64,000 nucleotides of DNA from Chlorobaculum parvum NCIB 8327. Its GTDB lineage: Bacteria > Bacteroidota > Chlorobiia > Chlorobiales > Chlorobiaceae. Shown here piece by piece: positions 43,492-52,037 of this stretch. Position numbers and translations under genes: made by a program. The notes below the pieces were generated by a model. The model was not told where the DNA came from and did not search any database. It saw only the letters and a program-made list of their open reading frames with translations. The first letter of the stretch is position 1; each line of letters opens with the position of its first letter. The stretch is taken from positions 1,782,001 to 1,846,000 of the forward strand of contig NC_011027.1 of the NCBI RefSeq assembly GCF_000020505.1. The letters run 5' to 3'.

Positions 43492-44010
43492 CTACTGCGG
43501 CGTTTTCATAACCCGCGATGTGTCGAAGCCCTGCGCTTTCGCCTCTTCGAGGAGCTTTTGGTAGAGCGCGTCGTCCATCTGCGGAGTTCTGGCTAAAATC
43601 CAGAAGTAGTCGCGGCTGGAGGCGGTGACCATTGCCCACGAGTAGTTTTCGTGGTCGAGAGCGAAAACAGTATACGGGCCGTAGAAGGGGCCGAAGAATG
43701 AGACCTTGAGCGCTCCGACGTTCGGATCTCCGGCGAATTTGGCTTTGCCTTCGGCGGTTTTCCACTTTTTCTTTTCGGGATAGTAGCCCTTGTTGAGCAC
43801 CTGAACCTTGCCGTCGTCGCGGAGGGTGTAGGTGGCCGAGACGTGATCGGAGCCGCGCTCGAACCAGTTGTCGATTCTGGCGATTTCATACCAGGTGCCG
43901 AGGTAGCGATCGAGCTTGAAGTTATCGACCGCCTCAATCCCCTTCGGCGCACTGCCGCACCCGGCAAGCGCAACCATCCACAAGAGCAAAGGCAATAAAA
44001 GTTTTTTCAT
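43492..44010 (-). CDS. Lipocalin family lipoprotein (Blc-like)
   Basis: 172 residues. The lipoprotein signal MKKLLLPLLLWMVALAGC has lipobox LAGC. The lipocalin signature DRYLGTWYEIARID is at about residue 33-46. The later YTLRDDGKVQVLNKGYYPEK and the lipid-pocket segment ARTPQMDDALYQKLLEEA match bacterial Blc. Such proteins bind fatty acids or lysophospholipids at the outer membrane under stress. Confidence 0.92.
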   Translation of the reverse strand: MKKLLLPLLLWMVALAGCGSAPKGIEAVDNFKLDRYLGTWYEIARIDNWFERGSDHVSATYTLRDDGKVQVLNKGYYPEKKKWKTAEGKAKFAGDPNVGALKVSFFGPFYGPYTVFALDHENYSWAMVTASSRDYFWILARTPQMDDALYQKLLEEAKAQGFDTSRVMKTPQ

Positions 44011-44077: not shown

Positions 44078-47000
44078 TCAGGATTTCAGGGTATCGGCTG
44101 AGCGTACGACACGAAAACCAAAAAAACTACCAGCACTACCTGGAGTGAGATAATAACGCCAAGTACACCGAAGTTTATCTTTATAACCGCTATTAGGGCT
44201 TCCTCGCAAAGCACGAGCTATTTTCGTATCATCATAGCTGTTTTCCTGCCACTGCCAGACATTACCAACCATATCATATAATCCTTCTGGTGTCGCTCCT
44301 TCAGGGCAACTTCCAACCGGAGTAGTCAAGTCAACATTATCACCACCAGCTCGTTTCGTGCTTGGTTTTTCTGCACCCCACGGATAACGCCGCCTTTCCT
44401 TTCCTGCCGCCGCCCATTCCCACTCAATTTCCATCGGCAAACGGTAAAGATCAAACTTCTTGCCTTTGCTCTCCATCAGAGAAAGCCACAGGCAATAGGA
44501 ACGTGCAGCATACCAAGGAATACTCACGACAGGTTGTTCTGCACCTCCAAATTTCCGGTCATCATCGTCCATAGATCGGAACCAACCAGCAAGATTACTT
44601 TTTCCTTCATTGAGATAATCTGCAAATTTTGTATCCCACGTTTTTTCATTCGCAATCTTTTGCAACTCCTCTTGAAATCCCGATACCGGAAAAAGAGACT
44701 CGCATTCCGGCGACTTCGATCGTAAATAATCTATGAACCGCCGATAAAGCCTGTTTGTCACCGGATATTTGGCAAAGTACAAATCGGAGACTTTCACCTC
44801 TTTTTTGGTTACCGAATAAACATAGCTGCCGCCTTTTATAAGAATGTACTGCGCATATTGTTCAAAGGGGTTGTGAAATGATGGAGAAGCTCGAAAACCT
44901 GAAGACAAATGATAACTCCAAAGACGATCTGGTAATGAGTATTCTGAATGGGTGGCATCAAGTTCTATCAGAACCTCAATTGCTCGTCCAGATGCATCTT
45001 CATCCTTCGCCAGTTTTCCAGTCACAAATTTCCTGACCAAAACAATAGATGATTCTTTATCAACTGCCCGAATACAATCCAAAATCACCCGCTGTCGCAT
45101 CGCGCTATTCTCCGGCTTCATCAAATGCTCGCAAAGCGCATCAGGCTTTTTCATTGGAGCTTCTTCAATCAATGTCCGAAGAAAGAGTTGCTTTTGTTGC
45201 AAAACATCATCACTGACATTTGACGAAAAAAGCTTGTCCATGAAGAGTTCGAAAAGCTCTTCGTCGCCGTGGGCAATGAAAAAGCGGAGCGGTTCTTCCC
45301 ACCAGTCTTCGCCGAAGCTTTTGATGATTGGGTCGAGATAACCCGAAGTCCGATTCACCTTTTTCACCAGTTCGATACCCGCGAGAAACTCACGGAACGA
45401 CTTGTGGCGGAAGACGTAGCTTTGCTTGCCGTACTCCATGAGCAGACCCGCTCGGTCAACGAGATAGTCACAAAAATCCTGCGCTGACGGGGATTTGTCG
45501 AGATTGCACAGGCGCTCGTCCATCGCGCTGCGCATCGCCCCTTTTTCCGCGTCATCCTCCTTCTGCTCCTGCATCCAGAGCGAAACCGGACCAAGCACCA
45601 TGCGGGCGTCTCTGGCTGGCAGCAACGGCTTGATGTTCCGGCGAGCATCCCGAAACTGGAGCAAGTAATCGAGCACCGAGTTGTACAGATCGACCCGGCT
45701 GTTGGGCAGGTGGTCGCGCTCTTTCCAGAGGATGGCCATGATCTGCAAAATCATTGGAATGGCCGCGAGCTGGCGCAGGCTGCGGTTGCCCTCCTCGCGG
45801 AGATGAGCGACGATTTTGGTGGTGCGCTCCTCTGCCCGGTGCTCCTGCCTGCTCTGCCACTCGGCCTCGGACAGACGCGCGTCGTTGTAGTCGCGCAGGA
45901 AGGCCGCCCGGAACCAGTTGGCGAGAAACCGCTCCTGCTGCTCCCGCGTGAAATCCTCGACATCGGCCCGGTCGTGATCGACCTCAAGCTCGACGCCGTC
46001 ATCCTTGCGGTAGCCGGTGCGCCGCGAGGTGACCACGAACCTCGCGCCGGTGTAGCTTTTCCACGCCCCCTCGATCCAGCGACACGCCTTTTTGCGCTCC
46101 TCGACGCTGCCAATTTCGTCGAGTCCGTCGAGCAAAACCAGCGAGCGGCTCTGTCGCAACCAGCCGTCGAACAGCTTGCGGTCAATCTCCAACTGATTGG
46201 CCGACGCCCACCGCGCGAGGCTATCGGCGAGATGATGAAAGCCGCCGTCGTCCTTTTTGACCAGCTCTCGCAACGGCAGGTAAAAGACGTTCACCGGCTC
46301 CGCGAATCCGAGGCGGCTGAAGCGTTCCGGGCCGAGGCAGCAGAGCGCGTAATACTTGAGCAGCGTCGTCTTGCCCGCGCCCGGATCGCCGATGACGAGT
46401 AGCATCCGCCGGTCACTTTTGAACGCCTCTTGCATCACCCGGTCGGGCGTAAGGATGTTCTCTTCGAGCATCGAATGCATCCGCTCCGGCCCGTCAGGCG
46501 CGAACTTCCGGCTGCGCGTGAACCGCAACGGCACGAAGGTGTCGTCATCGAGATTCACATCAATCCGCTCGATATTGGGCAGGCCCAGCATCCGGATCCA
46601 GCGCAGCTCCTCTTTCAGCGTTGACTGGTAGCACTGGAGGTCGGCGGCGCTGTCAGGTTGGGGAGGATCGGCTGGCTGGGAATCGGGATCACCGAACCAG
46701 CGAGGGATTTGCAGGTCGAGGTGGCGGGAGAGGTCGTGCTCAAATTTGTTGCGGTCGGAGAAGGAGTGGGTGAGCCATTTTTTAGTGACAATCGCCTTGA
46801 ATTCATCGAGCTTTGCTTCCTGCTCTTTATCGACCTGTGAACGGGACACCGGCACATCTGAGAAATAAACCATGATGTGCTTTTTATTTTTGACCATCTG
46901 CTCGATCTCTTCCACCGTTCCGCTCGGCGCGACGCCCGTATCGGTGCCGATTCGCGTCCAGAAGATGGCGATAGCGCAATGACACTCGTCAACAATCTGC

Positions 47001-47188
47001 TCGTTGACACTCCCCTGAAGTCGCTCGCCTGCCTCCGGAGCCGTGTGTGTTTCCCAGAGCACCGGTTCCAGCCAAATGCCATATTTGCTCTTGTGACGAG
47101 TATTCCATTCATGAACAACCGATTCGGCAATCTTGCGTTCCTCGCCGACATCGGAGGGTGAGGCGATCAGCACTTTGATGATTCGCAT
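44078..47188 (-). CDS. Large DUF4062 - NACHT NTPase - FGE/SUMF1-like protein
   Basis: 1036 residues, no signal peptide. Residues ~1-110 resemble DUF4062 (VLIASPSDVGEERKIAESVV), an N-terminal effector/adaptor domain found next to NACHT modules. A NACHT NTPase follows: Walker A GDPGAGKTTLL at 267-277, Walker B LVLLDGLDEIG at 350-360, a TSRRTGY sensor at ~387 and the winged-helix FRHKSFREFLAG at ~593. After a helical linker, residues ~785-1032 form a formylglycine-generating-enzyme/C-type-lectin-like domain (FAKYPVTNRLYRRF, RLPMEIEWEWAAAG, GLYDMVGNVWQW, FFGFRVVRS). NACHT proteins of this plan are STAND signalling ATPases, and several bacterial ones protect against phage. A defence role is inferred. 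The C-terminal half is more AT-rich than the N-terminal half. Confidence 0.88.
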   Translation of the reverse strand: MRIIKVLIASPSDVGEERKIAESVVHEWNTRHKSKYGIWLEPVLWETHTAPEAGERLQGSVNEQIVDECHCAIAIFWTRIGTDTGVAPSGTVEEIEQMVKNKKHIMVYFSDVPVSRSQVDKEQEAKLDEFKAIVTKKWLTHSFSDRNKFEHDLSRHLDLQIPRWFGDPDSQPADPPQPDSAADLQCYQSTLKEELRWIRMLGLPNIERIDVNLDDDTFVPLRFTRSRKFAPDGPERMHSMLEENILTPDRVMQEAFKSDRRMLLVIGDPGAGKTTLLKYYALCCLGPERFSRLGFAEPVNVFYLPLRELVKKDDGGFHHLADSLARWASANQLEIDRKLFDGWLRQSRSLVLLDGLDEIGSVEERKKACRWIEGAWKSYTGARFVVTSRRTGYRKDDGVELEVDHDRADVEDFTREQQERFLANWFRAAFLRDYNDARLSEAEWQSRQEHRAEERTTKIVAHLREEGNRSLRQLAAIPMILQIMAILWKERDHLPNSRVDLYNSVLDYLLQFRDARRNIKPLLPARDARMVLGPVSLWMQEQKEDDAEKGAMRSAMDERLCNLDKSPSAQDFCDYLVDRAGLLMEYGKQSYVFRHKSFREFLAGIELVKKVNRTSGYLDPIIKSFGEDWWEEPLRFFIAHGDEELFELFMDKLFSSNVSDDVLQQKQLFLRTLIEEAPMKKPDALCEHLMKPENSAMRQRVILDCIRAVDKESSIVLVRKFVTGKLAKDEDASGRAIEVLIELDATHSEYSLPDRLWSYHLSSGFRASPSFHNPFEQYAQYILIKGGSYVYSVTKKEVKVSDLYFAKYPVTNRLYRRFIDYLRSKSPECESLFPVSGFQEELQKIANEKTWDTKFADYLNEGKSNLAGWFRSMDDDDRKFGGAEQPVVSIPWYAARSYCLWLSLMESKGKKFDLYRLPMEIEWEWAAAGKERRRYPWGAEKPSTKRAGGDNVDLTTPVGSCPEGATPEGLYDMVGNVWQWQENSYDDTKIARALRGSPNSGYKDKLRCTWRYYLTPGSAGSFFGFRVVRSADTLKS

Positions 47189-47270: not shown

Positions 47271-47382
47271 GAAAGGGCGAACACGCAGGTTCGCCCCTAC
47301 AGGAAGAATGGTGGTTAGCGAACCGGACGTAGGGAAATATCCGACTGATTTGACCGATCTGGCGACCAGCCGGTCGCCCCTA
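47271..47382. repeat. Two GTAGGGGCGA-type dispersed repeats
   Basis: GGGCGAACACGCAGGTTCGCCCC at about 47275 and GGCGACCAGCCGGTCGCCCC at 47361-47380 are hairpins, both followed by TAC. They are further copies of the repeat seen after cydB. The second supplies the stop codon (TAG, minus strand) of the CDF transporter. Confidence 0.65.
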
Positions 47383-48327
47383 CCCGCCTTTGTGCGGCTC
47401 GTTCCTGCACACTTCGCCGGGATATTCGAGCTCTACGGTGGAATGGTAAATGCCGTGGCGGGCGACGAGCTTGCGAATCTCCTCTTTGATGCTGGCGTAT
47501 TCGGCAGGGTTGACTTCGCAGCCGATTTCGAGGTGAGCGGTGAAAACCGTGCGCTGGCCGTCGAGCGACCAGAGGTGCGCGTGATGCACGCCCGTGACGT
47601 GCTCGGTCTGCTGAATGTCGGCGACAACCTTGTCGAGGCTGAGCTCGCTTGGCACGGCTTGCAGGAAGACGGGAACCATTGCGCGGAGATTCTTCACCAC
47701 GCCGGTGAGGATGTAGAGGGTGATGACGATGGCGAGCAGCGGGTCGAGAATCGGCAAGTTCACGAAAAGCAACACCACGGAGACCAGCAGCACCGAGAGC
47801 CAGCCGAGCACGTCTTCAAGCAGGTGCAGGGCGATGACGCGGGCGTTCATGCCCGTCTGGCCCTTGAGGCGCAGCATCGCGAGCGAGTTAACCGCCACGC
47901 CAACCAGCGCGAAGGCGACCATCCCTTTGGCATCGGGAAGCTCCGGATGGATAAGGCGAGGCAGCGCTTCGACGAGCACCACGAACGAGCTGACGAGCAT
48001 CATCAGGGCGCTGAGGAGCGCGCCGAAAATCGAGAAGCGCTGGTAGCCGTAGGAGTAGCGCTTGTCGCCCGTCCGCCCGGCGAGCCTCTCGAAGTACCAC
48101 GCCTGACCGAGCGCAATGGAGTCGCCGAAGTCGTGCACGGCGTTGGCGAGAATGGCCGTGCTGTTGGTCAGCACGCCGCCGATCGCTTCGAGAATCGTGA
48201 AGCCGAAGTTCAGGAAAAAGGCGGTCTTAATGCTCCCGACCACATGGTGGTGATGCCCGGCATGACCGTGTTGATGGTCATGCTCGTGGCCGTGATCGTG
48301 ACTATGGTCGTGATGGTGCTCGCTCAT
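47380..48327 (-). CDS. Cation diffusion facilitator (CDF) family metal transporter
   Basis: About 315 residues from the ATG at 48327, giving the His-rich start MSEHHHDHSHDHGHEHDHQH. The longer frame would intrude into purU. Six membrane helices carry the paired metal sites HDFGDS (helix 2) and, later, LHLLEDVLGWLSVL (helix 5). The cytoplasmic C-terminal domain has TGVHHAHLWSLDGQ. It exports Zn2+ or similar divalent ions in exchange for protons. The His-rich tail probably senses or buffers the metal. Confidence 0.92.
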   Translation of the reverse strand: MSEHHHDHSHDHGHEHDHQHGHAGHHHHVVGSIKTAFFLNFGFTILEAIGGVLTNSTAILANAVHDFGDSIALGQAWYFERLAGRTGDKRYSYGYQRFSIFGALLSALMMLVSSFVVLVEALPRLIHPELPDAKGMVAFALVGVAVNSLAMLRLKGQTGMNARVIALHLLEDVLGWLSVLLVSVVLLFVNLPILDPLLAIVITLYILTGVVKNLRAMVPVFLQAVPSELSLDKVVADIQQTEHVTGVHHAHLWSLDGQRTVFTAHLEIGCEVNPAEYASIKEEIRKLVARHGIYHSTVELEYPGEVCRNEPHKGG

Positions 48328-48379
48328 GCTGAAACAACAACCAAACCAGCGCTGGGAATTCCCGGTGAACCGGATTGGC

Positions 48380-49249
48380 TCAGTCGAACACGACGGTCTT
48401 ACGCCCGTTGATGAGAATGCGGTGATCGCAGTGCAGGCGCAGGGCACGAGCCAGCACGAGCCGTTCGAGGTCACGCCCTTTGCGCACAAGGTCGTCGAGC
48501 GTGTCGCGGTGCGTAATGCGGATGATATCCTGCTCGATGATCGGCCCTTCATCGAGCTCGTCGGTGACGTAGTGGCTGGTCGCGCCGATGAGCTTCACGC
48601 CGCGCCGGTAGGCCTGGCGGTACGGATTGCCGCCGACAAAGGCCGGGAGGAACGAGTGGTGGATGTTGATGATCCGGCCCGCCCAGCGCCCTGTGAACTC
48701 CGGCGAGAGCACCTGCATGTACCGCGCCAGCACGATGGTGTCGATGCCATGCTCCTCGCACAGCGCCATCTGCCGCTGCTCGGCTGCGGCCTTGGTTTCA
48801 GGCGTCACCGGAACGACGTGGAACGGTATGCCGTGCGCTTCGACAAGCGGCGCGAGATCGGGATGATTGGAGATGACGAGCGGAATGTCGATGTCGAACT
48901 CACCGAGGCTGTGCCGCCAGAGAATCTCGCGCAGGCAGTGGTCGTACTTCGAGACGAAAACCGCCATCCGGTTGCGCGTGCCCGAAAACCGGATCGTCCA
49001 GTTCGCCCGAAATTCGCGAGCCAGCGGCGCAAAGGCCGATTCGAGGTCGTCGGCGGGAATCGAGAAATTATCGAGACTCCACGAAACGCGGAGAAAAAAC
49101 TGACGCTCGTCCACATCGACATGCTCGTTGAGGTCGAGAATGTTGCCTCCGCGCTCGTAGATGAAATTGGCGATCCGCGCCACAAGCCCCACGCGGTCGG
49201 GGCAGGAGAGCAAAAGCACGGCTTTGGAGGGTTCGGCGGCAGCGGTCAT
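48380..49249 (-). CDS. purU: Formyltetrahydrofolate deformylase
   Basis: 289 residues. The N-terminal ACT domain (LLSCPDRVGLVARIANFIY) senses one-carbon status. The C-terminal formyltransferase-fold domain has the catalytic region INIHHSFLPAF, GATSHYVTDELDEGPII and the conserved Asp. It releases formate from 10-formyl-THF, balancing folate pools and supplying formate for PurT. The CDF gene lies 52 bp downstream on the same strand. Confidence 0.95.
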   Translation of the reverse strand: MTAAAEPSKAVLLLSCPDRVGLVARIANFIYERGGNILDLNEHVDVDERQFFLRVSWSLDNFSIPADDLESAFAPLAREFRANWTIRFSGTRNRMAVFVSKYDHCLREILWRHSLGEFDIDIPLVISNHPDLAPLVEAHGIPFHVVPVTPETKAAAEQRQMALCEEHGIDTIVLARYMQVLSPEFTGRWAGRIINIHHSFLPAFVGGNPYRQAYRRGVKLIGATSHYVTDELDEGPIIEQDIIRITHRDTLDDLVRKGRDLERLVLARALRLHCDHRILINGRKTVVFD

Positions 49250-49437: not shown

Positions 49438-51669
49438 TCACACGGCGAAGACTTCTTGACCGTCCAGTACAAAATCTAGGACTCCGGTCAAGCCTACCTG
49501 TTCGGCATCATTGCCGTTTCCAGCAGCATCAACAAGACCGTGGAAGTATGCCTCGGTGCCCAATTCGAAATGGTGGGCCAAGGCCGCTTGAATTTTCGAG
49601 GCAACTCCCTCGTGACCGTCAAGCAAGAAATCAAGAGCTCCGGTCAAACCTGCTGGCAGCTCAGCATTGACACCGTTGCCATGACCGATACCCGCATCGA
49701 CCAAACCGAGGAATTCAGCTTCGGTGCTCAATCCGAAATCGTTAGCTGAAGATGCCGCACCAAGCTCCGATTCAGTTCCGGTCGAAGCGGCAAGCGCGCT
49801 GGTTCCGAGGAAGTCCGCCGAGTTGGTTAGGATATTTTCAAGCTCTTCAACTGTCCAGATCGATGCGAAGTCCGCTTCCGCTGAAAGCAGCAGCGCAGCG
49901 GCACCCGCGACGTAAGGCGTAGCCATCGAGGTTCCGCTCATCGAGGCGTAACCGCCAGTGTAATAGCTGCTGTAAATGCTCACGCCGGGCGCAACGACAA
50001 AATCGTAAGGATCGGTGTCGCCTGCATCGTTGCTGAACGAAGCTACAACGTTACTGCTGTTGACCGCACCGACCGCGATGCCGCCGAGGGTTTGAGCGAG
50101 GATTCCCGGATAGGTTGGCGAGGTTTCATAGTCATTGCCTGAAGCCATACAGACGATAACCCCGTGATCGAGCGCATAGGATACAGCGTTGTAAACATCG
50201 CTGGAGTATGCGCCATAAGCACCGAGCGACATGTTGATCACATCGGCACCGTTATCAACGGCATAGATAATGCCGTCCGCAACTGCCGCGAAGGAGCCGC
50301 TGCCCGAAGAGCTGAGTACTTTGACCGCCATGATCGAGGCATCGTAAGCGACACCGGTCACTCCGGTACCGTCATCCTCTCCAGCAATGATACCGGCAAC
50401 ATGAGTGCCATGTCCATGATCATCGATCGGATCACCATCATTGTTGATGAAGTCATAGCCGTAAACGTCATCGATATAGCCGTTACCATCATTATCGATA
50501 CCGTCACCAGCAATCTCTCCAGAATTGACCCACATGTTCGCATCAAGATCGCTGTGGGTGTAGAGCACGCCGGTATCAATCACCGCCACGACAATGCCTT
50601 CGCCGGTGTATCCGGCCTGCCAGGCGTCAGGAGCCTGGATGTCGTTCAAGCCCCAATCCCAGGAGTCGTAACCGTCACCATAAAGGGGCGCGTCGGCAAT
50701 GCTCTGACCAGTCGCGGCTTCCAGCATGGCGTCAATATTGAGCAATCCATGACCGGAAACCGGATCCCACGAAACAGGATCAGGAGCGGTTTCGGTTGTG
50801 AAATCATACTCGGTCGTTCCAGCGTAGCTGTTGCCCGCAAGGTCATGCACCGCATCGGTTCCGATGGTGACATAGTAATGCGTTTCATTGGCAAGATCGC
50901 TGGTCGGATCGATCGTCAGCGTGCTTCCCGAAAAATTCAGGTTACTGCTGGTCGCCGCATCGAAGCTTTCGATCACCGTTCCTGTCGGCGAATCGACATG
51001 AATCTCGATGGTACCGCTACCGGCCTGAATCGCTTCGTTGAAGGTCAGGGTGATGTTGGTGCCCACCGCGACATTGCCGCTATCGTCAGCCGGGCTGAAA
51101 TCGATAACTAACGGCGCATCCGTATCAGAACCGGCTTCGGTTGTGAAATCGTAGGTTTTTGTTCCGGCATAGTCGTTGCCTGCAAGATCTTCAACGCTTC
51201 CCCTGCCAAGCACCACATAGTAATGGGTTTCAGGATCGAGGTCAAATGTCGGATTGATGGTCAGAGTGCTGCCTGAAAACGTGAGGTTATCGCTGCTGGA
51301 AACATCGAAACTCTCAAATATGGTGCCACGAGAAGAGTCGACACGAATGGTAATTGTGCCGCTACCAGCTTGAATATCCTCACTAAATGTCAGCGTGATA
51401 TTGGATCCTACCTCGACACCAGAACTGTTGTCTGAAGGCTCGAAGCTGGTAACCGTAGGAGCTGTTTTATCGCCTGTAGGAACATCAGGATCAGGGAGTG
51501 GTTTTTTCTGGATTCCAAGCTCTCCGTCATCCGGAAAATCGATAACAGGCGATGAAAAGTGAGAGGTCGACCATCCTCTGGCAGAAAAATCGGGCTCGTT
51601 GGGAGCAGCCCCTGCGAACAGGTACTGGAAAGCATCAGCTTGATGGTTCAGCAAGGTTTTGTTATTCAT
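49438..51669 (-). CDS. Subtilisin-family serine protease with two Ig-like domains and C-terminal repeats
   Basis: 743 residues from the ATG at 51669. Two related Ig-like (Big_5/SbsA-type) domains at ~68-182 and ~185-297 share NITLTFSEDIQAGSGTI / NITLTFNEAIQAGSGTI and end AGTKTYDFTTE / AGTTEYDFTTE. The S8 catalytic domain (~340-620) has Asp365 in AVIDTGV, His420 in HGHGTHVAG, Asn512 in ASGN and Ser581 in SGTSMATPYVAG. An Asp-rich insert (DGIDNDGNGYIDD) looks calcium-binding. The C-terminus has two copies of a ~40-residue unit (TEAEFLGLVDAG..LTGALDFLLDG and TEAYFHGLVDAA..LTGVLDFVLDG). No Sec signal peptide is visible, so export by a type I system or another route is inferred. Confidence 0.9.
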   Translation of the reverse strand: MNNKTLLNHQADAFQYLFAGAAPNEPDFSARGWSTSHFSSPVIDFPDDGELGIQKKPLPDPDVPTGDKTAPTVTSFEPSDNSSGVEVGSNITLTFSEDIQAGSGTITIRVDSSRGTIFESFDVSSSDNLTFSGSTLTINPTFDLDPETHYYVVLGRGSVEDLAGNDYAGTKTYDFTTEAGSDTDAPLVIDFSPADDSGNVAVGTNITLTFNEAIQAGSGTIEIHVDSPTGTVIESFDAATSSNLNFSGSTLTIDPTSDLANETHYYVTIGTDAVHDLAGNSYAGTTEYDFTTETAPDPVSWDPVSGHGLLNIDAMLEAATGQSIADAPLYGDGYDSWDWGLNDIQAPDAWQAGYTGEGIVVAVIDTGVLYTHSDLDANMWVNSGEIAGDGIDNDGNGYIDDVYGYDFINNDGDPIDDHGHGTHVAGIIAGEDDGTGVTGVAYDASIMAVKVLSSSGSGSFAAVADGIIYAVDNGADVINMSLGAYGAYSSDVYNAVSYALDHGVIVCMASGNDYETSPTYPGILAQTLGGIAVGAVNSSNVVASFSNDAGDTDPYDFVVAPGVSIYSSYYTGGYASMSGTSMATPYVAGAAALLLSAEADFASIWTVEELENILTNSADFLGTSALAASTGTESELGAASSANDFGLSTEAEFLGLVDAGIGHGNGVNAELPAGLTGALDFLLDGHEGVASKIQAALAHHFELGTEAYFHGLVDAAGNGNDAEQVGLTGVLDFVLDGQEVFAV

Positions 51670-52037
51670 GACCACAGGGGTTTACAGTTGATTGGTATAG
51701 ACCCTCACATAAAAAAAGACAATAACATATACACTCTTTTATTACTCTTTAAATAAAAAAATACAACACTATAGGCTCAATCCCAAGACAAAAACATATA
51801 CGCGGTGTTCCCACTTACAATCCATAAGCAAACTCTTCGCGTCAATAAGTCTGCCTTCATATCATCCTGACAGACACCTTGGCAAACACCCGTGGAGACT
51901 CGCTGAAAATGGTTATTTTCAGAGCCAGCGACATACTGAACGGTATGATGAAGCGATCAGAGCTGGCAGCAATAGCGCAACATCCGCACATTTAATTCAA
52001 AGTCGCCACTGGTCATCGAAGCAAAACGCAGAGCAAC
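51670..52037. other. AT-rich divergent intergenic region between the subtilase and PAP2 genes
   Basis: 368 bp, markedly AT-rich near 51700-51790, presumably holding the subtilase promoter. It contains only a 28-codon frame at about 51909-51995 (MVIFRASDILNGMMKRSELA) without supporting features. No RNA gene or repeat is recognised. Confidence 0.45.

What the first reader, a model, noticed from the sequence alone, without database searches (positions are those of the whole stretch)
44078..47188. Single-gene DUF4062-NACHT-FGE protein: candidate antiphage or signalling STAND NTPase
Seen: an N-terminal DUF4062-like domain, a complete NACHT core (Walker A GDPGAGKTT, Walker B LLDGLDE, FRHKSFREFLAG) and a C-terminal FGE/C-type-lectin-like domain in one 1036-residue cytosolic protein. 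Known: NACHT proteins in bacteria include antiphage systems (bNACHT) that recognise a trigger through the C-terminus and act through the N-terminus. DUF4062 also precedes NACHT in some animal STAND proteins. Inference: DUF4062 is the effector or adaptor and the FGE/lectin domain is the sensor. I do not know a described system with exactly this order.
Basis: partly seen in the sequence, partly recalled or inferred. Interest (0 to 1): 0.78.

Follow-up and report, generated by a model that had tools for sequence, protein, structure and literature searches.

The report
Bacterial NLR-like receptor, retroelement-diversified family
This green sulfur bacterium carries a single-gene immune-receptor-like protein (an NAD-destroying-type domain, an NLR-type switch and a lectin-like sensor) from a family whose sensor tips are rewritten in sister species by a mutation-making reverse transcriptase and whose killing domains are interchangeable; the copy here seems to be a stranded member that has lost its diversifier.

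Summary
The ORF is real, on the minus strand (47188→44078, 1036 aa): DUF4062 (TIR-like, invariant E94), a complete NACHT core and helical region, and a C-terminal FGE/C-type-lectin fold. The full-length model matches NLRC4/NLRP3, and the FGE half matches the known DGR variable protein TvpA. I find 112 non-redundant relatives, nearly all from Chlorobiaceae. They keep the NACHT-FGE chassis but swap the N-terminus: two DUF4062 types, a third weakly related module, metallophosphoesterase, TM segments, AlbA_2. The FGE C-terminus is hypervariable. In relatives this is caused by a diversity-generating retroelement (DGR): template repeats beside DGR reverse transcriptases differ from the variable repeats only at template adenines (19/19, 13/13, 18/18, 23/23). 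In two genomes one template serves a DUF4062 receptor and a receptor with another N-terminus. The window genome has no reverse transcriptase or template, and its own variable region shows no adenine signature, so I read it as an orphan. Its slot between cation-transporter and lipocalin genes is empty, decayed or differently filled in congeners. Best reading: an abortive-infection receptor acting by NAD+ depletion. DUF4062 as NADase (Swarozyc) and DGR-diversified NACHT-lectin sensors are each known; I found no report of the combination. Function is untested.

The parts
44078..47188 (-). DUF4062-NACHT-FGE receptor gene, 1036 aa (P0001)
   Evidence: family-wide conservation
46694..47188 (-). N-terminal DUF4062 TIR-like effector domain, aa 1-165; five strands and five helices; invariant E94 (codon 46907-46909)
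   Evidence: closest DUF4062 among the relatives compared is L062:9988 (71%) while the NACHT is closest to L059 (94%)
45905..46408 (-). NACHT NTPase domain, aa 261-428; Walker A aa 267-275 (46364-46390), Walker B aa 350-358 (46115-46141)
   Evidence: Pfam PF05729 E 4.7e-13; residues invariant in 39 relatives
44909..45868 (-). Helical region after the NACHT, aa 441-760, with FRHKSFREFLAG at aa 593-604 (45377-45412)
   Evidence: Helices in the AlphaFold model; fold match to NLRC4/NLRP3
44102..44809 (-). C-terminal FGE / C-type-lectin-like sensor domain, aa 794-1029
   Evidence: Pfam PF03781 E 6e-32; fold match to FGE and to TvpA 2y3c; only one Cys (C1008) in aa 985-1036
44120..44212 (-). Variable region, aa 993-1023, equivalent to the DGR-mutated VR of relatives; 23-29% identical to orthologues whose NACHT is 92-94% identical
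   Evidence: no adenine signature against the available template in this copy (p=0.21)
43492..44010 (-). Lipocalin gene, conserved flank of the slot (flank, not part of the system)
47380..48552 (-). Cation transporter gene, conserved flank of the slot (flank, not part of the system)
   Evidence: directly next to the lipocalin gene in 13 congeners without the receptor

Best explanation
A single-chain NLR-like (STAND/NACHT) immune receptor. At rest the NACHT-helical core holds the protein inactive. The C-terminal FGE/C-type-lectin domain binds a foreign ligand through a cluster of variable surface residues, the NACHT exchanges nucleotide and oligomerises, and the clustered N-terminal DUF4062 (TIR-like) domains hydrolyse NAD+, arresting or killing the infected cell. 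Shown here: architecture, the NLR-type fold match, the invariant candidate catalytic Glu, modular exchange of the N-terminal domain on a common NACHT-FGE chassis, hypervariation confined to the lectin tip, and DGR-mediated diversification of that tip in relatives, including receptors of the same DUF4062-NACHT-FGE order. Inferred: NADase activity of this protein, ligand type (phage), oligomeric activation and cell death. In the window genome the DGR is absent, so this copy is probably a frozen member that keeps one sensor specificity.
For: Domains. Fold: full-length model best PDB hits NLRC4 E 2e-15, NLRP3, NOD2; FGE enzymes; TvpA 2y3c E 6.6e-7. E94 invariant in 44 DUF4062 domains. Chassis with swapped N-termini: 112 non-redundant members, 41 DUF4062-A, 22 TM, 16 metallophosphoesterase, 11 DUF4062-B, 10 GHSDD, 2 AlbA_2, 4 combined, 6 other or truncated. 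DGR: template/variable mismatches only at template A in L209 (19/19), L154 (DUF4062 type, same MAG, 13/13), L069 (18/18), L068 (DUF4062 type, same genome, 23/23); reverse transcriptases with the LPIGNLTSQ/YVDD-type motif beside the templates. A template predicted from variable-region codons was found in 4 of 81 family genomes, control pattern 0. P0001 against orthologue L059: NACHT 94%, variable region 23%. Slot polymorphism. DUF4062 is a phage-triggered NADase in KpSwz (PMC13174449).
Against: No phage-defence or NADase data for this family. No defence-island setting at this locus, and the neighbour scan elsewhere was not decisive. The alignment of E94 to KpSwz E97 is ambiguous by two residues: the Pfam profile and strand spacing support it, MAFFT and hhalign place E94 two residues earlier. 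Foldseek of the N-domain alone gives generic flavodoxin/Rossmann hits, with a TIR only at rank 18. P0001's own variable region shows no adenine-specific signature, and its fixed GGSW motif has become GSPN.
Confidence: 0.72

Rival explanations
1. A STAND receptor that senses self, kin or stress signals and regulates development or cell contact, not phage; DUF4062 makes a signalling nucleotide.
For: No defence island at this locus and no decisive defence enrichment among neighbours elsewhere. TIR-type enzymes can make signals (general knowledge). Some members have TM segments, and many DGR targets are surface ligand binders (PMC8144416).
Against: Presence/absence, decay and replacement at one slot, exchangeable effectors and a hypermutated sensor look like an arms race; KpSwz DUF4062 is antiphage (PMC13174449).
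Confidence: 0.17
2. This particular copy is a decaying relic: intact reading frame but no longer functional, like the remnants in congeners.
For: Remnants at the same slot: 55-aa remnant in G015, internally deleted copy in G010. No DGR left; fixed VR residues GGSW changed to GSPN.
Against: Frame of 1036 codons intact, NACHT 92-94% identical to orthologues, all catalytic motifs kept. A frozen sensor can still work.
Confidence: 0.2
3. The hypervariable tip arises by ordinary positive selection or gene conversion between paralogues, not by a DGR.
For: In the window's own genus no matching template or reverse transcriptase of this type was found, even in the one-contig genome G020. P0001 and L059 give no adenine signature.
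Against: Template/variable mismatches are 100% at template A and 0% at VR A in L209, L154, L069 and L068. Same-genus members L060, L062 (three), L066, L033, L046, L074 show mismatch at template A 0.52-0.69 against 0.08-0.13 elsewhere, p 2e-4 to 2e-8.
Confidence: 0.08
4. FGE is an active formylglycine-type modifying enzyme and the protein is an ATP-regulated enzyme.
For: Pfam name FGE-sulfatase, E 6e-32.
Against: Only one Cys (C1008) in aa 985-1036, so the Cys pair of the FGE copper site (general knowledge) cannot form there. The region that carries the catalytic site is the hypervariable one. The same fold is the standard DGR ligand-binding scaffold (TvpA).
Confidence: 0.02

Closest known systems
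DGR-diversified NACHT/nSTAND-CLec antigen sensors of multicellular bacteria (Dore et al. 2024, PMC10907252)
   Same: Central NACHT, C-terminal C-type-lectin (FGE subtype) carrying the variable repeat, several targets per genome, in-trans use of a template; PB-PSB1 also has a target with metallophosphoesterase and NACHT.
   Different: That paper does not mention DUF4062. Here one template serves receptors with different N-termini in Chlorobiaceae, and the window copy has no DGR.
Swarozyc (KpSwz), DUF4062 TIR-like NADase (PMC13174449; PDB 10wc)
   Same: N-terminal DUF4062 with a conserved candidate catalytic Glu; predicted abortive infection by NAD+ loss.
   Different: KpSwz has a short winged-helix auxiliary domain and no NACHT or FGE. 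It binds the phage portal directly.
Animal DUF4062-NACHT STAND proteins TEP1, NWD1, NWD2, NPHP3
   Same: DUF4062 next to a NACHT, in the place of the APAF-1 CARD (PMC13174449).
   Different: Sensors are WD40 or other repeats instead of an FGE lectin; no hypermutation.
bNACHT / Avs antiphage STAND proteins
   Same: Tripartite effector-NTPase-sensor chain, single gene, FRHKSFREFL-type motif.
   Different: Different C-terminal sensors; known effectors are mostly nucleases and others, not DUF4062 (general knowledge). No DGR in the characterised ones.
TvpA (Treponema denticola variable protein, 2y3c)
   Same: FGE-type C-type-lectin fold with the variable region at the C-terminus.
   Different: A surface lipoprotein without NACHT or effector (general knowledge).

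Membership tests
STAND/NACHT NLR-like proteins | NACHT NTPase with Walker A and B, tripartite chain, NLR-type fold | tested here: met
STAND/NACHT NLR-like proteins | Ligand-triggered oligomerisation | not testable with these tools
   Needs biochemistry
DUF4062 TIR-like NADases (Swarozyc effector) | DUF4062 sequence family | tested here: met
   P0001 alone is below the Pfam cut-off (13.7 against 24.7 bits); 38 of 44 homologous domains hit DUF4062, best E 1.8e-6
DUF4062 TIR-like NADases (Swarozyc effector) | Catalytic Glu equivalent to KpSwz E97 | tested here: inconclusive
   E94 invariant in 44/44. Pfam profile register and spacing to strand D put it on the KpSwz mutated column (A84 in 10wc_A, which I read as E97A); MAFFT and hhalign place it two residues earlier
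DUF4062 TIR-like NADases (Swarozyc effector) | NADase activity | not testable with these tools
   Needs an enzyme assay
Swarozyc system as described | C-terminal winged-helix auxiliary domain binding the portal | tested here: not met
   The C-terminus is NACHT-FGE; it is not a Swarozyc, though its effector is of that family
DGR target protein | C-type-lectin/FGE fold with hypervariable C-terminal repeat | tested here: met
DGR target protein | Template repeat with mismatches confined to adenines, for relatives of the same architecture | tested here: met
   L068 23/23 and L154 13/13, both DUF4062-NACHT-FGE
DGR target protein | The same, for the window copy itself: template and reverse transcriptase in the genome | tested here: not met
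   No RVT_1, no L207-type reverse transcriptase, no template in G000; no adenine signature against the L209 template
Defence-island gene | Enrichment of defence genes in the neighbourhood | tested here: inconclusive
   Flanks are housekeeping at the window slot; among 100 sampled neighbours elsewhere two match type III methyltransferases, but the number of neighbours with any hit was not given

The most novel reading that the evidence does not exclude
In Chlorobiaceae a single diversity-generating retroelement keeps rewriting one shared lectin sensor tip on a set of NLR-like receptors that differ in their killing domain (NADase-type, phosphoesterase, membrane), giving a combinatorial, somatically diversified bacterial immune repertoire, with DUF4062-NACHT-FGE as its NAD-depleting arm and the window gene as a member that has been uncoupled and fixed.
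Probability: 0.5. Interest if true: 0.85.

Novelty: new variant of a known kind. Interest (0 to 1): 0.62.

Why it matters
Two recent threads meet here: DUF4062 as an antiphage NADase, and retroelement-hypermutated NLR-like sensors whose immune role was proposed but not tested. Two genomes in which one template serves a DUF4062 receptor and a receptor with another N-terminus give a direct way to ask whether bacteria diversify immune receptors the way vertebrates do. The window genome may also offer a frozen single-gene member, free of retroelement components, that can be assayed in a laboratory strain.

Tried and rejected
(1) Template for P0001's own variable region in its genome: none. (2) Reverse transcriptase in the window genome: none. 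(3) Finding the N-domain in PDB by sequence profile A2: only chance hits; KpSwz was reached only weakly, from the canonical DUF4062-B domain (E 1). (4) Fold search of the N-domain alone: generic flavodoxin/Rossmann hits, a TIR at rank 18, so the TIR-like claim rests on DUF4062 membership rather than on this search. (5) Active FGE enzyme: rejected, a single Cys in the region. (6) Defence-island test by scanning 100 neighbours against PADLOC: not decisive, because only tallies per model are returned. (7) Phage origin: no phage record covers more than 25% of the protein, FGE part only.

Full report
WHAT IS THERE. The ORF at 44078-47188 is on the minus strand, 1036 aa, ATG start. Pfam finds FGE-sulfatase (aa 794-1029, E 6e-32) and NACHT (aa 261-428, E 4.7e-13); DUF4062 (aa 5-96) is present but below the curated cut-off in this single sequence. 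A set of 44 homologous N-domains settles it: 38 hit DUF4062 (best E 1.8e-6) and all 44 hit the PADLOC candidate PDC-S60. The N-domain model (pLDDT 83.9) has the five-strand, five-helix alternating order described for KpSwz (PMC13174449). The full-length model (mean pLDDT 79.6) has as best PDB matches NLRC4 (E 2e-15), NLRP3 and NOD2, and for the C-terminal part FGE enzymes and the Treponema DGR protein TvpA, 2y3c.

A FAMILY WITH A FIXED CHASSIS AND EXCHANGED N-TERMINI. 17 of 61 genomes searched have a match at E 1e-10 or better; within the genus and family many carry several copies, up to 14 matches in one genome, while the window genome has one. A scan of genome contigs found 327 relatives; the best 80 are nearly all Chlorobiaceae, with a few from KSB1 and Aminicenantes. 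Many copies align only from about aa 185 onward. Of 112 non-redundant members, the N-terminus is DUF4062 like the window's (41), a signal-peptide/TM type by a crude hydropathy rule (22), a calcineurin-like phosphoesterase (16), a canonical DUF4062 (11), a 'GHSDD' module weakly related to DUF4062 (10; profile E 9e-5), AlbA_2 (2), combinations (4), other or truncated (6). P0001 is itself a mosaic: against L059 its NACHT is 94% and its helical part 90% identical but its DUF4062 only 60%, whereas its DUF4062 is 71% identical to L062:9988, whose NACHT is only 61%. Third-position GC drops from 76% in aa 1-640 to 38% afterwards.

THE SENSOR TIP IS A DGR VARIABLE REGION. In alignment A3, columns 1000-1005, 1012-1015 and 1017-1022 have mostly about 3 bits of entropy between invariant or nearly invariant G996, R1011, P1016 and G1024. 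In several members the variable codons are NNC/NNT between fixed codons. From these I predicted a template repeat; it was found within 3 mismatches in 4 of 81 family genomes, with no hit for the reversed control pattern. The clearest case is L209: phosphoesterase-NACHT-FGE gene, template, then a reverse transcriptase with the DGR motif LPIGNLTSQ, variable region differing from the template at 19 positions, all of them template adenines. In the same MAG, L154:2051-5062, a DUF4062-NACHT-FGE gene on another contig, differs at 13 positions, again all adenines. A second genome repeats this: L069 (TM type, beside the template and reverse transcriptase) 18/18 and L068 (DUF4062-NACHT-FGE, other contig) 23/23. 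In these comparisons no mismatch lay at an adenine of the variable region, a built-in direction control. L207-type reverse transcriptases are associated with presence of the family in the 37 genomes of the bacterial family (Fisher p 0.002 at E 1e-35, p 0.04 at E 1e-15; phylogeny not corrected).

THE WINDOW COPY. G000 has no RVT_1 match, no L207-type reverse transcriptase and no template. Against the L209 template P0001 mismatches at 66% of adenines and 54% of other sites (p 0.21), so the adenine signature is absent here, while eight members from the same genus give p from 2e-4 to 2e-8. Its variable region is 23-29% identical to orthologues whose NACHT is 92-94% identical. I read it as an orphaned, diverged variable region. 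Position: purU - cation transporter - [receptor] - lipocalin - cydC. In 13 congeners transporter and lipocalin are direct neighbours; a member occupies the slot in G020 and, as far as the contigs reach, lies next to the lipocalin in G011 and G001; G010 has a different, TM-type, internally deleted copy; G015 keeps a 55-aa remnant.

MECHANISM. DUF4062 domains of KpSwz and human TEP1 are shown NADases, and KpSwz gives abortive infection (PMC13174449). E94 is invariant in 44 domains and is the candidate catalytic residue; its register to KpSwz E97 is supported by the Pfam profile and the spacing to strand D but contradicted by two residues in MAFFT and hhalign alignments. Only one Cys (C1008) lies in aa 985-1036, so formylglycine chemistry is unlikely and a binding role fits. 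The proposed chain, lectin binds ligand, NACHT oligomerises, DUF4062 hydrolyses NAD+, is inference beyond these points.

COMPARISON AND NOVELTY. DGR-diversified NACHT-lectin sensors are described in multicellular bacteria, including in-trans diversification and a metallophosphoesterase-NACHT-lectin target (PMC10907252). The FGE domain as a DGR-linked conflict-system module is in PMC7159879. DUF4062 as an antiphage NADase is PMC13174449. No held paper contains both DUF4062 and 'diversity-generating'. The part that looks new is the combination and the sharing of one template between receptors with different N-termini; hence a new variant of a known kind. Defence-island clustering was not demonstrated.

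HOST.

Noticed in passing
L155:5061-10856; similar in L157, L161, L163: Very long single ORFs: in L155 Mrr-type endonuclease, NACHT, DUF4062, then the second NACHT and FGE in one chain of about 1930 aa, two STAND switches in one protein; in L162 the DUF4062-NACHT-FGE part is a separate ORF.
   Followed up: partly
L055:920-2356: An FGE protein without NACHT, with a weak CAP12/Pycsar-type TIR match in its N-terminus, on the same strand downstream of a DGR reverse transcriptase (L055:3085-4248) and upstream of a DUF4062-NACHT gene: a possible minimal TIR-lectin DGR target.
   Followed up: partly
L203:1585-5406: Aminicenantes member of the chassis with a ParA/MinD-like ATPase as N-terminus.
   Followed up: no
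L048:9200-9364 and L052:5458-6987: Decayed copies at the same slot as the window gene: a 55-aa N-terminal remnant in G015 and an internally deleted TM-type copy in G010.
   Followed up: yes
window 44078-45270: The 3' 40% of the gene has GC3 of 38% against 76% in the 5' part, pointing to a sensor half from another source; orthologues L059 and L057 show the same step more weakly.
   Followed up: partly
L060, L062, L066, L033, L046, L074: Same-genus variable regions with strong adenine signatures, although no matching template or L207-type reverse transcriptase was found in these assemblies, G020 being a single contig: DGR loss or spread of pre-diversified genes.
   Followed up: partly
L209 near 9200 (G073:C78 contig end): The DGR reverse transcriptase frame reads YVDD then changes into unlike sequence close to the contig end; assembly error or broken gene.
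   Followed up: no
window 49438-51675: S8 subtilase with two N-terminal repeats (SbsA-Ig-like by eye), a likely surface or secreted protein, near the slot.
   Followed up: no
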